Assembly: GCA_002782005.1 (NCBI GenBank)
Contig: PFGT01000101.1
Span: forward strand, 62,001-126,000
DNA length: 64,000 nucleotides
Source of the DNA: Hydrogenophilales bacterium CG12_big_fil_rev_8_21_14_0_65_61_21
GTDB lineage: Bacteria; Pseudomonadota; Gammaproteobacteria; Burkholderiales; Thiobacillaceae
Direction: 5' to 3'
Positions 55,561 through 59,620 of this stretch are shown one piece after another. Made by a program: the position numbers and the translations under genes. The notes below the pieces were generated by a model, which saw only the letters and a list, made by a program, of their open reading frames with translations, searched no databases and was not told where the DNA came from. Position 1 is the stretch's first letter. Each line of letters opens with the position of its first letter.

Positions 55561-56994
55561 ATGAACTACATCAGCACACGGGGTAACGCCCCCGCGCAAA
55601 CCTTCTCGCAAATTCTGCTCGGCGGCCTGGCCCCCGACGGCGGCCTGTACCTGCCCGAGACTTATCCCCGGTTCAGCGCCGACGACCTGGCGGTGATGCG
55701 TGGCATGGATTACCGTGAGTTGGCCTTGACCGTGCTGGCCCGACTGGCCGACGACATCCCGGTTGCCGATCTCAAGGCGCTGATTGATCGGACCTACACT
55801 GCCGCGACTTATTGCCACGGCCGGCCTGACTCTGATTTCGACCAGATCGCGCCGGTGCGCAGGCTGGAAGATGGCCTATACCTGCTGGAACTATCCAACG
55901 GCCCGACCCTGGCCTTCAAGGACATGGCCATGCAGTTGCTCGGCAACCTGTTCGAGTACGCGCTGGAAAAGGCTGGCCAGGACATCAACATCCTTGGCGC
56001 GACCTCGGGCGACACCGGCTCGGCGGCCGAGTACGCCATGCGCGGCAAGAAGAACGTGCGGGTATTCATGCTCTCGCCGTTGGAGGGCATGACCCGCTTC
56101 CAGCAGGCCCAGATGTACAGCCTGCAAGATGCCAACATCCACAACCTGGTGCTGCGCGGTGTGTTCGACGACTGCCAGGACATCGTCAAGGCGGTCTCCA
56201 ACGACCTCGAATTCAAGGGTCGCTACCGTATCGGCGCGGTCAACTCGATCAACTGGGCACGGGTCGCCGCCCAGACCATCTACTACTTCAATGCCTATTT
56301 CGCGGTCACTACCGCGAACGATCAGACCGTCGCCTTTTCGGTGCCCTCGGGCAACTTCGGCAATATCTGCGCCGGTCACATTGCCCGCCAGATGGGGCTG
56401 CCTGTACACAAGCTGATCGTCGCCAGCAACGAGAACGACGTGCTCGACGAGTTCTTTCAGACCGGCGTCTACCGGCCGCGCAGCGCCGCCGAGACCACAC
56501 ATACCTCCAGCCCGTCGATGGACATTTCCAAGGCCTCCAACTTCGAGCGCTTCATGTTCGACCTGACCGGTCGTGACGCCGCCAAGGTGCGCGAGCTATG
56601 GGGTGCGGTCGACCAGGGCGGCGCCTTCGACCTCAAGCGGCATGGTCTGTTCGAGCGGGTCACCGAATACGCCATGGCGTCCGGCAAGAGCCGCCATGCC
56701 GACCGCATGGCCACTATCCGGATGGCCTGGCAACGATTTGGCGTCATGATCGATCCCCACACAGCCGATGGTCTGAAGGTCGGTCTGGAACACCGCGAGG
56801 CCGGTATCCCGCTGGTCTGTCTGGAAACGGCGCTACCGGCCAAGTTCGAGGATGCCATCGTCGAGGCCCTGGGCCGTAAGCCGGAACGCCCGGCCGGCCT
56901 GGCGGACCTGGAAAGCCTGGCGCAACGCTATGAGGTGCTGAACGTCGATGCCGAGGCCGTCAAGGCGGTCATCGCCGCCCATGCCAACGACTGA
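55561..56994 (+). CDS. thrC: Threonine synthase
   Basis: MNYISTRGNAPAQTFSQILLGGLAPDGGLYLPE; NGPTLAFKDMAMQLLGNLFEYAL; GATSGDTGSAAEYAM. Confidence 0.97.
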   Translation: MNYISTRGNAPAQTFSQILLGGLAPDGGLYLPETYPRFSADDLAVMRGMDYRELALTVLARLADDIPVADLKALIDRTYTAATYCHGRPDSDFDQIAPVRRLEDGLYLLELSNGPTLAFKDMAMQLLGNLFEYALEKAGQDINILGATSGDTGSAAEYAMRGKKNVRVFMLSPLEGMTRFQQAQMYSLQDANIHNLVLRGVFDDCQDIVKAVSNDLEFKGRYRIGAVNSINWARVAAQTIYYFNAYFAVTTANDQTVAFSVPSGNFGNICAGHIARQMGLPVHKLIVASNENDVLDEFFQTGVYRPRSAAETTHTSSPSMDISKASNFERFMFDLTGRDAAKVRELWGAVDQGGAFDLKRHGLFERVTEYAMASGKSRHADRMATIRMAWQRFGVMIDPHTADGLKVGLEHREAGIPLVCLETALPAKFEDAIVEALGRKPERPAGLADLESLAQRYEVLNVDAEAVKAVIAAHAND

Positions 56995-57371
56995 TGACCC
57001 ATAACCTGCTGATCCGCCTGATCCTGGTCGCCTTTTTGGGGCTGCTGGCTTGGGGTGGGGCGCAGGGCTTCTGGAATGGCGCCGCCAATAAAGCGCCGAC
57101 GACCACCCATATCACCGGCCTGCCGCCCGAGGCGCGACAAACCCTGGACCGGATCAAGCGCGGCGGGCCGTTCCCCTATGGCCGCGACGGCATCGTCTTT
57201 CAGAACCGGGAGAACCGGCTGCCGCCGAAACCGCGCGGCTACTACCACGAATACACCGTGCCGACGCCTGGCGCCCGCGATCGAGGGGCGCGGCGGATCA
57301 TTGTCGGCCCGCCGGGCGAGTATTACTACACCCAGGATCATTACCGGAGCTTCTGGAGGATTCAGGAATGA
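56994..57371 (+). CDS. Secreted guanyl-specific ribonuclease (barnase/RNase N1 family)
   Basis: N-terminal TM/signal (LIRLILVAFLGLLAWGGAQGF) then TLDRIKRGGPFPYGRDGIVFQNRENRLPPKPRGYYHEYTVPTPGARDRGARRIIVG...YYTQDHYRSFWRI, the microbial RNase core; overlaps thrC stop by 1 bp. Confidence 0.9.
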   Translation: MTHNLLIRLILVAFLGLLAWGGAQGFWNGAANKAPTTTHITGLPPEARQTLDRIKRGGPFPYGRDGIVFQNRENRLPPKPRGYYHEYTVPTPGARDRGARRIIVGPPGEYYYTQDHYRSFWRIQE

Positions 57372-57775
57372 GCCAACCTATTCCCTTGGCCAAGATACTC
57401 GGCCACCCCGAAGCGAACGGTCTGTACCGTTTTCCCATTGGTGCTGTCTTGCCCGGCGCGATCCGCCTGGCCGGGCAGGACTTGGCCGGCAAATCGGCGC
57501 TGCTCAAGACACTGGCCAAGGCGCTCGCTTTCCCCGACTGGTTTGGCCGCAATTGGGACGCGCTGGCAGACTGCCTGACCGACCTGTCCTGGCATGAAGG
57601 CGCCGTTGCGCTGCTGATCGACGACGCGGCCGTACCGGAGACCGAGGCCCCCGACGACTGGGGCGCGCTGCTCGCCATCCTGGCTGACGCTGCGCATTAC
57701 TGGCGGTCCGAAGGCCGGCCCTTTGCGGTCTTCCTGCAAGGCGGTCATGCCGCTTATCCAAGGGTTGCCGCTTGA
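57368..57775 (+). CDS. Barstar family RNase inhibitor
   Basis: LDLAGKSALLKTLAKALAFPDWFGRNWDALADCLTDLSWHEGAVALLIDDA; 4-bp overlap with RNase. Confidence 0.93.
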   Translation: MSQPIPLAKILGHPEANGLYRFPIGAVLPGAIRLAGQDLAGKSALLKTLAKALAFPDWFGRNWDALADCLTDLSWHEGAVALLIDDAAVPETEAPDDWGALLAILADAAHYWRSEGRPFAVFLQGGHAAYPRVAA

Positions 57776-58194
57776 TCCGTCTGCTGGCCTATCTATGGGC
57801 CTCGCCTAATAGCCTGATCGGGCTGCTGCTCGCTGTGGCTGGCAGTCGCAGGCAGTGGCGGCGCGGCGTGCTGGAGAGCACCGGAGGCTGGTTGCCCCGA
57901 CTCCTGGGGCACAAGATCGAGGCCATCACCCTGGGTCACGTCATCCTGGCCTGCCATGCCGATGCGCTCGATCACTGGCGCGACCATGAACGCCGGCACG
58001 TCCGCCAATACGAACGGCTCGGGCCGCTATTCCTGCCGGCCTATTTTGGCCTGGCGCTGTACGTCGCATTGCGTGGCCGTCACCCCTACCGCGATCATCC
58101 GCTGGAGCGTCAGGCAGGGCTTTTCATGCCGAACCAGGCGACAAAAGAAAATTCTCGGGAATCTTTGTCAGGAATCGGCGATCACAGCGACTAA
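57772..58194 (+). CDS. Conserved hypothetical, membrane-associated, HExxH-like motif
   Basis: TM-like N- and C-terminal parts flanking DHERRHVRQYERLGPLFLPAYF; 4-bp overlap with barstar gene. Confidence 0.75.
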   Translation: MIRLLAYLWASPNSLIGLLLAVAGSRRQWRRGVLESTGGWLPRLLGHKIEAITLGHVILACHADALDHWRDHERRHVRQYERLGPLFLPAYFGLALYVALRGRHPYRDHPLERQAGLFMPNQATKENSRESLSGIGDHSD

Positions 58195-58259
58195 CCAGCA
58201 GACGATCGAGACCATCGTCACGAGCCGCCCATCGGGCATTTAAACCTTAGGAGATCGAC

Positions 58260-58709
58260 ATGAACGCCAACAAAACCATCCTGACCCTCGCCCTGACCGC
58301 TGCGCTCGGCATAGCCGGCATCGCCCAAGCGGCGGGCAATCCCTTCGCCATGGACAATCTGAACAGCGGTTATTTGGTCGCTGCCGCCGATAGCAAGACG
58401 ATGGAAGGCAAGTGCGGCGCCGCCATGGCCGCTGGCGACAACAAGGCTGCTGGCGACGATGCCGCGGCGGGCAAGGTCAAAAACGGCAAATGCGGCGCCG
58501 GAAAATGCGGCGCCAACATGGGCATCAACAAGGCCAAGGTTAAGGCCATGGATGGCAAGTGCGGCGCCGCCAAGGGCGTGAAGGCCAAATCTAAAACTAC
58601 GGTCAAGGCCAAGGCGATGGAAGGCAAGTGCGGTGCTGCCAAGGCAGTCGACACTAAGGCCATGGACCCCAAGACCATGGAAGGCAAGTGTGGTGCCAGC
58701 ATGAAGTAA
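58260..58709 (+). CDS. HvfA-like low-complexity secreted peptide with repeated (E/D/N)GKCG motifs (probable MNIO-type RiPP precursor)
   Basis: Sec signal peptide, then NPFAMDNLNSGYLVAAADSK and six KCG motifs (MEGKCGAA, NGKCGAGKCGA, MDGKCGAA, MEGKCGAA, MEGKCGAS); RBS GGAG upstream. Confidence 0.85.
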   Translation: MNANKTILTLALTAALGIAGIAQAAGNPFAMDNLNSGYLVAAADSKTMEGKCGAAMAAGDNKAAGDDAAAGKVKNGKCGAGKCGANMGINKAKVKAMDGKCGAAKGVKAKSKTTVKAKAMEGKCGAAKAVDTKAMDPKTMEGKCGASMK

Positions 58710-58744: not shown

Positions 58745-59620
58745 TTATCCGACCGCATCTTGAGCCACGAAGCGCATCGATAGGTCGACTGCCTGAACGT
58801 TTTTGGTCAGGCTACCGATAGAGATGCGGTCGACGCCGGTTTCGGCGACCGCGCGGATATTTTCCAGGGTGATGCCGCCCGAGGCCTCCAGTTCGGCGCG
58901 GCCGGCGGTGAATAGCACCGCTTCGCGCAACGCATCCAGGGCAAAATTGTCGAGCAAGATCAGTTTGGCGCCGGCGTCCAGCGCCATGGCCAATTGAGCC
59001 CTGCTTTCCACCTCGATTTGCACGCCGATACCGGCCGGCGCGATCTTGCCCGCCTGTTCCAGCGCGGGGCCGATGCCGCCGGCGGCGGCGATGTGGTTTT
59101 CCTTGATGAGTATGGCGTCGTACAAGCCCATGCGCTGGTTCTCGCCGCCACCGCAACGCACAGCGTATTTTTGCGCCTGTCTGAGTCCGGGTAGGGTCTT
59201 GCGGGTGTCATAAATGCGGGCACGGGTGCCGCTAATCGCTGCGACGTATTGGCGCGTGACCGTCGCCACGCCGGACAGGGTTTGCAGAAAGTTGAGCGCC
59301 GAGCGTTCGGCGCTGAGTAGGGCGCTGGCCTGGCCCTCGATAACGCATAGCGTCTGGCCGGCGGCGATGGCCTCGCCATCGGCGGCCAGCCAGCGCGGTT
59401 CAATATTCGGATCGAGCCGCTTGAATACCGCGTCGAACCAAGGCTGACCGGCCAGTACGGCATCTTCGCGGGTAATGACCTGGGCGCGCGCCATGGCGGT
59501 TACCGGGATCAGCCGGGCGGTCAGGTCGGCATTCAAACCGGCTGCCCAGCAAACGCCCAGGTCTTCGGCGAGGGCAGCGTCTATATTGGTGTTGATGATG
59601 GTTTCCGGTGGTTGCATCAA
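58745..59620 (-). CDS. nadC: Nicotinate-nucleotide pyrophosphorylase (carboxylating)
   Basis: AERSALNFLQTLSGVATVTRQYV, YDTRKTLPGLRQAQKYAVRCGGGENQRMGLYDAILIKENHI, EASGGITLENIRAVAETGVDRISIG. Confidence 0.97.
   Translation of the reverse strand: MMQPPETIINTNIDAALAEDLGVCWAAGLNADLTARLIPVTAMARAQVITREDAVLAGQPWFDAVFKRLDPNIEPRWLAADGEAIAAGQTLCVIEGQASALLSAERSALNFLQTLSGVATVTRQYVAAISGTRARIYDTRKTLPGLRQAQKYAVRCGGGENQRMGLYDAILIKENHIAAAGGIGPALEQAGKIAPAGIGVQIEVESRAQLAMALDAGAKLILLDNFALDALREAVLFTAGRAELEASGGITLENIRAVAETGVDRISIGSLTKNVQAVDLSMRFVAQDAVG

What the first reader, a model, noticed from the sequence alone, without database searches (positions are those of the whole stretch)
58260..58709. Orphan HvfA-like EGKCG-repeat peptide: candidate RiPP copper/metal-binding precursor without an adjacent maturation enzyme
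Directly seen: a signal peptide, a leader-like NPFAMDNLNSGYLVA segment, then six GKCG motifs (58401-58418, ~58482-58512, ~58548-58568, ~58617-58637, ~58674-58697) in a Lys/Ala-rich low-complexity context. Established: HvfA/BufA-type precursors carry EGKCG repeats whose Cys are modified by MNIO (DUF692) enzymes with a DUF2063-type partner, giving thioamide/oxazolone-type modified metal-binding peptides. Unusual: the repeats are spaced 20-40 residues apart, and no DUF692 or DUF2063 gene lies within this window; the neighbours are an RNase/barstar operon and nadC. It may be served by an enzyme in trans, or be an unmodified Cys-rich metal buffer.
Basis: partly seen in the sequence, partly recalled or inferred. 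Interest (0 to 1): 0.72.

Follow-up and report, generated by a model that had tools for sequence, protein, structure and literature searches.

The report
Copper-peptide precursor that lost its enzymes
This sulfur-oxidizer relative still carries an intact gene for a secreted, cysteine-rich copper-binding-type peptide (HvfA family), but its genome lost, by a visible deletion, the enzymes that normally modify those cysteines, so it is a natural test of whether the unmodified peptide is useful.

Summary
Window 58260-58709 (+) encodes a 149-aa peptide: Sec-type signal peptide, NPFAMDNLNSGYLVAA segment and exactly six GKCG motifs. NCBIfam's HvfA domain model matches above its cut-off (NF050137, 30.7 vs 19.5 bits). 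In most relatives carrying such genes, the gene sits directly before an MNIO (DUF692) and a DUF2063 gene. Here neither enzyme exists anywhere in the 99.5%-complete genome, so 'served in trans by an MNIO' is refuted.

The reason is visible 18 kb downstream, outside the window. The ancestral operon (ECF sigma, zinc-finger anti-sigma, hvfA, hvfB, hvfC, DoxX) was cut in frame: the first ~15 codons of one hvfA copy are now fused to DoxX, and hvfB and hvfC are gone. A sister species, G006, has the same junction, but its DoxX is frameshifted and its orphan hvfA has ATG->ATA and only two Cys. In this genome both genes are intact and show purifying selection.

Best reading: a former RiPP precursor kept as an unmodified periplasmic thiol metal buffer. 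Main rival: a slowly decaying relic.

The parts
58260..58709 (+). orphan hvfA-like gene, 149 aa, six GKCG motifs
   Evidence: Translation; NF050137 30.7 bits vs cut-off 19.5, NF050188 35.2 bits vs cut-off 95; closest match by E-value among genomes with an MNIO is G008:C14, 70% identical, which is followed by MNIO and DUF2063 genes
58260..58334 (+). Sec-type signal peptide, about 25 aa (MNANKTILTLALTAALGIAGIAQAA); cleavage site inferred by eye
   Evidence: Sequence; conserved start MNxxKTxLTLALTAA in relatives. In the literature the signal peptide of this class doubles as leader (PMC13419390)
58338..58388 (+). conserved segment NPFAMDNLNSGYLVAAA after the signal peptide
   Evidence: Conserved across the 17 aligned sequences as roughly NPFAxxxLxxGYxVA
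58404..58694 (+). core with six xGKCG motifs (58404, 58482, 58497, 58551, 58620, 58680)
58207..58237 (+). 5' element CGAGACCATCGTCACGAGCCGCCCATCGGGC shared with the 5' regions of enzyme-linked hvfA genes and of the hvfA'-DoxX fusion in the same genome
   Evidence: function unknown, possibly promoter or 5' UTR
58249..58253 (+). Shine-Dalgarno AGGAG
   Evidence: conserved in relatives
57772..58194 (+). unassigned ORF (orfX) upstream; neighbour, not shown to belong
   Evidence: syntenic in G006
58745..59620 (-). nadC, convergent neighbour; leaves only 35 bases after hvfA, so no room for hvfB/hvfC
   Evidence: hvfA lies beside nadC only in this genome and G006, not in the other relatives examined

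Best explanation
The gene is a genuine HvfA-family precursor that outlived its maturation enzymes. In the common ancestor of this genome and its sister species G006, one in-frame deletion removed the body of the operon's own hvfA together with hvfB (MNIO) and hvfC (DUF2063 partner). It left sigma factor - anti-sigma factor - DoxX, with DoxX now starting from the hvfA start codon. A second hvfA copy, carrying its original 5' element, had been placed between orfX and nadC and was kept. The product is most likely exported by Sec and works in the periplasm as an unmodified, lysine-rich, six-cysteine thiol peptide that binds Cu(I) or another soft metal, possibly together with the retained DoxX. Shown by sequence: homology, absence of enzymes, deletion junction, intactness of hvfA and DoxX. 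Supported statistically: selection to keep hvfA. Inferred: export, metal binding, cooperation with DoxX, control by the retained sigma factor.
For: HvfA domain match. No PF05114 at E<=10 and no PF09836 in the genome. Operon scar: ECF sigma (PF04542/PF08281), zf-HC2 anti-sigma, then MNASKTTLSLAFTTT|FGLLNKVGEW... DoxX at C54:138782, 18,073 bases after hvfA; intact order ECF-antisigma-hvfA-hvfB-hvfC-DoxX in G008 and G073. Same junction, no gap, in G006. Purifying selection: own vs G006 hvfA dN/dS 0.26, 24 synonymous vs 25 non-synonymous, binomial p 2e-4 to 4e-3; own branch 6 vs 4, p 0.024. Neutral decay at 0.15-0.2 substitutions per site keeps start codon, open frame and six GKCG in 2e-4 to <5e-5 of simulations; neighbouring genes give dS 0.35-0.53 for the pair. 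DoxX fusion open, dN/dS 0.13 vs G073. EGKCG products with 5-thiooxazoles bind Cu (PMC13097082).
Against: In G006 the same orphan has lost its ATG and all but two Cys, and its DoxX is frameshifted, so the pair is dispensable there. Only three of six motifs keep Glu. No data on expression or metal binding. Copper binding in the literature is for modified peptides. The selection tests rest on few sites, and the branch test covers only codons 2-44 (signal and NPF segment), not the Cys core.
Confidence: 0.55

Rival explanations
1. Relic: hvfA and the hvfA'-DoxX fusion are leftovers of a lost copper-peptide operon, with no present function, caught before they decay as they already have in G006.
For: G006 shows decay of both genes. 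Related genomes show successive stages: G003 has a frameshifted, truncated hvfB, G074 has hvfA joined to the last 34 residues of hvfC and then DoxX, G004:C345 has only an hvfA stump.
Against: All six motifs, ATG, ribosome site and frame survive a branch of about 0.2 synonymous substitutions per site; neutral simulations almost never give that. dN/dS well below 1. No decayed motif remnants visible. DoxX also intact.
Confidence: 0.3
2. The peptide is still modified, by an enzyme not recognised here: an MNIO too divergent for PF05114, or another oxidative or heterocycle-forming enzyme acting in trans.
For: Cys context and signal/NPF segment, the parts that HvfBC-type enzymes use, are kept; FonBC tolerates most single Ala changes in the repeat (PMC13097082).
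Against: No PF05114 even at E<=10, no DUF2063. hvfB and hvfC were physically deleted. 97 of 101 HvfA-positive genomes in the class sample have an MNIO, so replacement enzymes would be rare.
Confidence: 0.08
3. Assembly artefact: the enzymes exist but fall in gaps of a 126-contig assembly.
For: Draft genome, 126 contigs.
Against: The ancestral operon is assembled internally with the deletion junction, and a separately assembled sister genome shows the same junction. Both enzyme families are missing from both genomes.
Confidence: 0.04
4. An ordinary Lys/Ala/Cys-rich secreted protein unrelated to HvfA.
For: Low-complexity composition.
Against: NF050137 above cut-off, shared signal/NPF segment and 5' element with enzyme-linked genes.
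Confidence: 0.02

Closest known systems
HvfA / oxazolin precursor (NF050188, NF050137; Haemophilus hvf operon)
   Same: Sec signal peptide, repeated (E)GKCG, DoxX gene retained in the genome
   Different: No MNIO (HvfB), no DUF2063 partner (HvfC); mostly single rather than paired motifs; Glu lost in three of six; below the HvfA equivalog cut-off
Captophorins such as fontiphorin (FonA) and gonophorin (PMC13097082)
   Same: Lys-Cys-Gly repeat core of the kind converted to Cu-binding 5-thiooxazoles
   Different: The enzyme pair needed to form 5-thiooxazoles is absent
Stand-alone bufferin/Buf_EGKCG precursor genes (PMC12452194)
   Same: Precursor gene not next to an MNIO gene; reported as sizeable proportions in the two bufferin subfamilies, with stand-alone types drawn for the precursor families
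   Different: That survey speaks of genetic linkage; here the whole genome lacks the enzymes and the deletion that removed them is visible
hvf-type operon of Thiobacillaceae relatives G008 and G073 (ECF sigma, zf-HC2 anti-sigma, hvfA, hvfB, hvfC, DoxX)
   Same: Ancestral arrangement: sigma factor, anti-sigma, DoxX and the hvfA start are still at that locus
   Different: hvfA body, hvfB and hvfC deleted; surviving hvfA copy lies elsewhere

Membership tests
HvfA-domain (EGKCG) precursors | Repeated [E]GKCG motifs matching NF050137 | tested here: met
   30.7 bits vs cut-off 19.5
HvfA-domain (EGKCG) precursors | N-terminal Sec signal peptide followed by the NPF..GY.VA segment | tested here: met
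   Alignment with 16 relatives; no signal-peptide program was available
HvfA equivalog (oxazolin precursor) | Score above NF050188 cut-off (95 bits) | tested here: not met
   35.2 bits
Captophorin/oxazolin RiPP system | MNIO (PF05114) next to the precursor or in the genome | tested here: not met
   No match at E<=10 in the genome
Captophorin/oxazolin RiPP system | DUF2063 partner (PF09836) | tested here: not met
   No match in the genome
Captophorin/oxazolin RiPP system | DoxX protein of the operon | tested here: met
   PF07681, 76 bits, fused to an hvfA start, C54:138782
Captophorin/oxazolin RiPP system | 5-thiooxazole on Cys | not testable with these tools
   Needs mass spectrometry; the known enzymes are absent
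Captophorin/oxazolin RiPP system | Copper binding or copper protection | not testable with these tools
   Needs binding or growth assay

The most novel reading that the evidence does not exclude
A RiPP metallophore precursor has been turned back into a plain ribosomal metal-binding peptide: after deletion of the modifying enzymes, unmodified HvfA together with DoxX and the old sigma/anti-sigma pair forms a working, enzyme-free metal-stress system, and this reversion has happened repeatedly in one bacterial family.
Probability: 0.3. Interest if true: 0.75.

Novelty: new variant of a known kind. Interest (0 to 1): 0.52.

Why it matters
The role of the precursor itself and of DoxX in these widespread copper-stress operons is open; the literature notes both as unresolved (PMC13097082; PMC13419390). 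This lineage is a natural experiment with precursor, DoxX and regulators but without the modifying enzymes, beside a sister species in which the leftovers are decaying and relatives in which the operon is complete. It makes the question 'does the unmodified Cys-rich precursor do anything?' directly testable. It also warns that an HvfA hit alone does not imply a modified product.

Tried and rejected
Pfam gave no family for hvfA or orfX. Enzyme in trans was tested with PF05114 and PF09836 in the whole genome, PF05114 also at E<=10, and rejected. Reading the shared 5' element as an ECF promoter was considered (CGTC resembles a -10 box), but the spacing to a credible -35 could not be fixed and the orphan keeps only 22 of 37 strongly conserved columns, so no promoter is claimed. 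A first dN/dS run with G006 in the wrong frame (end) was discarded and redone. Taking the nadC site as the ancestral operon site was rejected: nadC-clpB is conserved in the genus without hvfA. No structure prediction was run, since the core is low-complexity and likely disordered.

Full report
What is in the window. ORF 58260-58709 (+) encodes 149 aa with a Sec-type signal peptide, the segment NPFAMDNLNSGYLVAAA, and six Cys, each inside an xGKCG motif. Shuffling the mature part gives at most two GKCG in 20,000 trials. NCBIfam's HvfA domain model NF050137 matches above its cut-off (30.7 vs 19.5 bits); the full HvfA equivalog NF050188 matches but stays below its cut-off (35.2 vs 95). Neighbours are an RNase (PF00545), barstar, an unassigned ORF and, converging from the other side with only 35 bases between, nadC.

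Where its relatives sit. Named records among the relatives include Thiobacillus denitrificans, so the family is Thiobacillaceae (inferred: the Thiobacillus denitrificans RG contig has 230,623 bases, the length of G087:C30). In the 61 nearest genomes, HvfA-like genes generally lie directly upstream of an MNIO gene, which in the loci examined is followed by DUF2063. Across the 118 family genomes, 82 have an HvfA-like gene and 82 an MNIO. Eight HvfA-positive genomes have no MNIO: this one, G001, G002 and G006 in the same genus, and G074, G076 (58% complete), G019 and G077 in genus g3. The excess in the window's genus is significant: 4 of 7 against 4 of 75, Fisher p 0.001. In a class-wide sample of 377 genomes at least 95% complete, 97 of 101 HvfA-positive genomes have an MNIO; the exceptions are this genome, G248, G359 and G464. 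A precursor with no MNIO in the whole genome is therefore unusual.

The enzymes are absent, and the reason is visible. The genome (2.27 Mb, 126 contigs, 99.5% complete) has no PF05114 match even at E<=10 and no PF09836. A DoxX gene lies on the same contig, 18 kb beyond hvfA. It is preceded by an ECF sigma factor and a zf-HC2 anti-sigma factor, the same order that precedes hvfA-hvfB-hvfC-DoxX in G008 and G073. Its N-terminus is the start of an hvfA: MNASKTTLSLAFTTT runs straight into the DoxX sequence FGLLNKVGEW. This is an in-frame deletion that removed the hvfA body, hvfB and hvfC and left DoxX under the hvfA 5' region and start codon. G006 has the identical junction without any gap, so one deletion in the common ancestor is the simplest reading. 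A short shared TCGGC at the two ends (seen by eye) could make the deletion recur, so two independent events are not excluded. Because the junction is assembled in two separate genomes, a gap in the assembly cannot explain the missing enzymes.

The orphan is a second copy. Its 5' region carries the same element as enzyme-linked hvfA genes and as the fusion (CGAGACCATCGTCA..CGCCCA..GGGC). nadC-clpB is conserved in the genus, but hvfA lies beside nadC only in this genome and G006 among the genomes examined. The copy was thus most likely placed there in their common ancestor.

Is it kept by selection? In G006 the orphan has ATA in place of ATG, is cut to 84 codons and retains two Cys; its DoxX is frameshifted. 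In the window's genome both genes are open. Over 79 aligned codons own vs G006 show 24 synonymous and 25 non-synonymous differences, dN/dS 0.26, p between 2e-4 and 4e-3 against neutrality. Polarised with outgroups over codons 2-44, the own branch has 6 synonymous and 4 non-synonymous changes, p 0.024. Flanking genes give dS 0.35-0.53 for the pair, i.e. about 0.2 per branch; neutral simulation at 0.15-0.2 keeps start, frame and all six GKCG in 2e-4 to fewer than 5e-5 of runs. Caveats: few sites; the aligned part is mostly signal and NPF segment; the ancestral number of motifs is unknown, and the open frame alone survives in about 20% of runs at 0.2. DoxX shows dN/dS 0.13 against G073.

The same loss has happened elsewhere in the family. 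G074 has hvfA joined to the last 34 residues of hvfC and then DoxX. G003 has a frameshifted, truncated hvfB after its hvfA. G004:C345 has an hvfA stump with the same 5' element.

What it most likely does. Known EGKCG products carry 5-thiooxazoles made by the MNIO-DUF2063 pair and bind copper, and the pathways are often induced by copper, gold and oxidative stress (PMC13097082; PMC13419390). Without the pair, the product should be an exported, basic, six-thiol peptide (pI about 9.6). I favour an unmodified thiol buffer for Cu(I) or another soft metal in the periplasm, at 0.55. The relic model gets 0.3. What is shown: homology, absence of enzymes, deletion junction, intact genes. What is inferred: export, metal binding, link to DoxX, and control by the old sigma factor.

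Relation to the literature. PMC12452194 reports that sizeable proportions of bufferin precursors are encoded away from MNIO genes, and mentions stand-alone precursor genes in a figure that also covers Buf_EGKCG. Physical orphans are therefore known. I found no report of a genome-wide absence explained by a visible operon deletion with the precursor retained, but the held library is incomplete. I class it as a new variant of a known kind.

Noticed in passing
G000:C54:137815-139243 (L130:11815-13243), about 18 kb beyond the orphan, outside the window: ECF sigma, zf-HC2 anti-sigma and an hvfA'-DoxX in-frame fusion: scar of the ancestral hvf operon.
   Followed up: yes
L085:3075-3890 (G074:C149): Independent scar: hvfA truncated and joined to the last 34 residues of hvfC, then intact DoxX; hvfB gone.
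   Followed up: partly
L131:5914-6171 and L132:6052-6450 (G248): A 99%-complete genome in the same class, about 10 contigs, with two strong EGKCG precursors on different contigs and no PF05114 match.
   Followed up: partly
L084, L089, L090:6391-6780, L078:8102-8542: A second, stand-alone HvfA-like paralogue in genus g3 with KCGGMKGKEGSCGG-type repeats or KCGDMK motifs, away from MNIO genes.
   Followed up: partly
L013, L019 (G011, G020): HvfA-like precursors with EF-hand-like segments (DADNDGNVSKDEF, DANKDGKVSKEEF) between GKCG motifs, next to MNIO genes.
   Followed up: no
L094:8000-8536 (G064): Second hvfA copy with two KCG motifs and a C-terminal repeat of the DQAGGFSFAELSKGVPVMM kind, 2 kb from the operon copy.
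   Followed up: no
window 56994-57775: Barnase-type RNase (PF00545) overlapping a barstar gene, conserved in G006.
   Followed up: no
window 58207-58237: Conserved 5' element with a GCCC..GGGC inverted repeat shared by this hvfA subtype; role unknown.
   Followed up: partly
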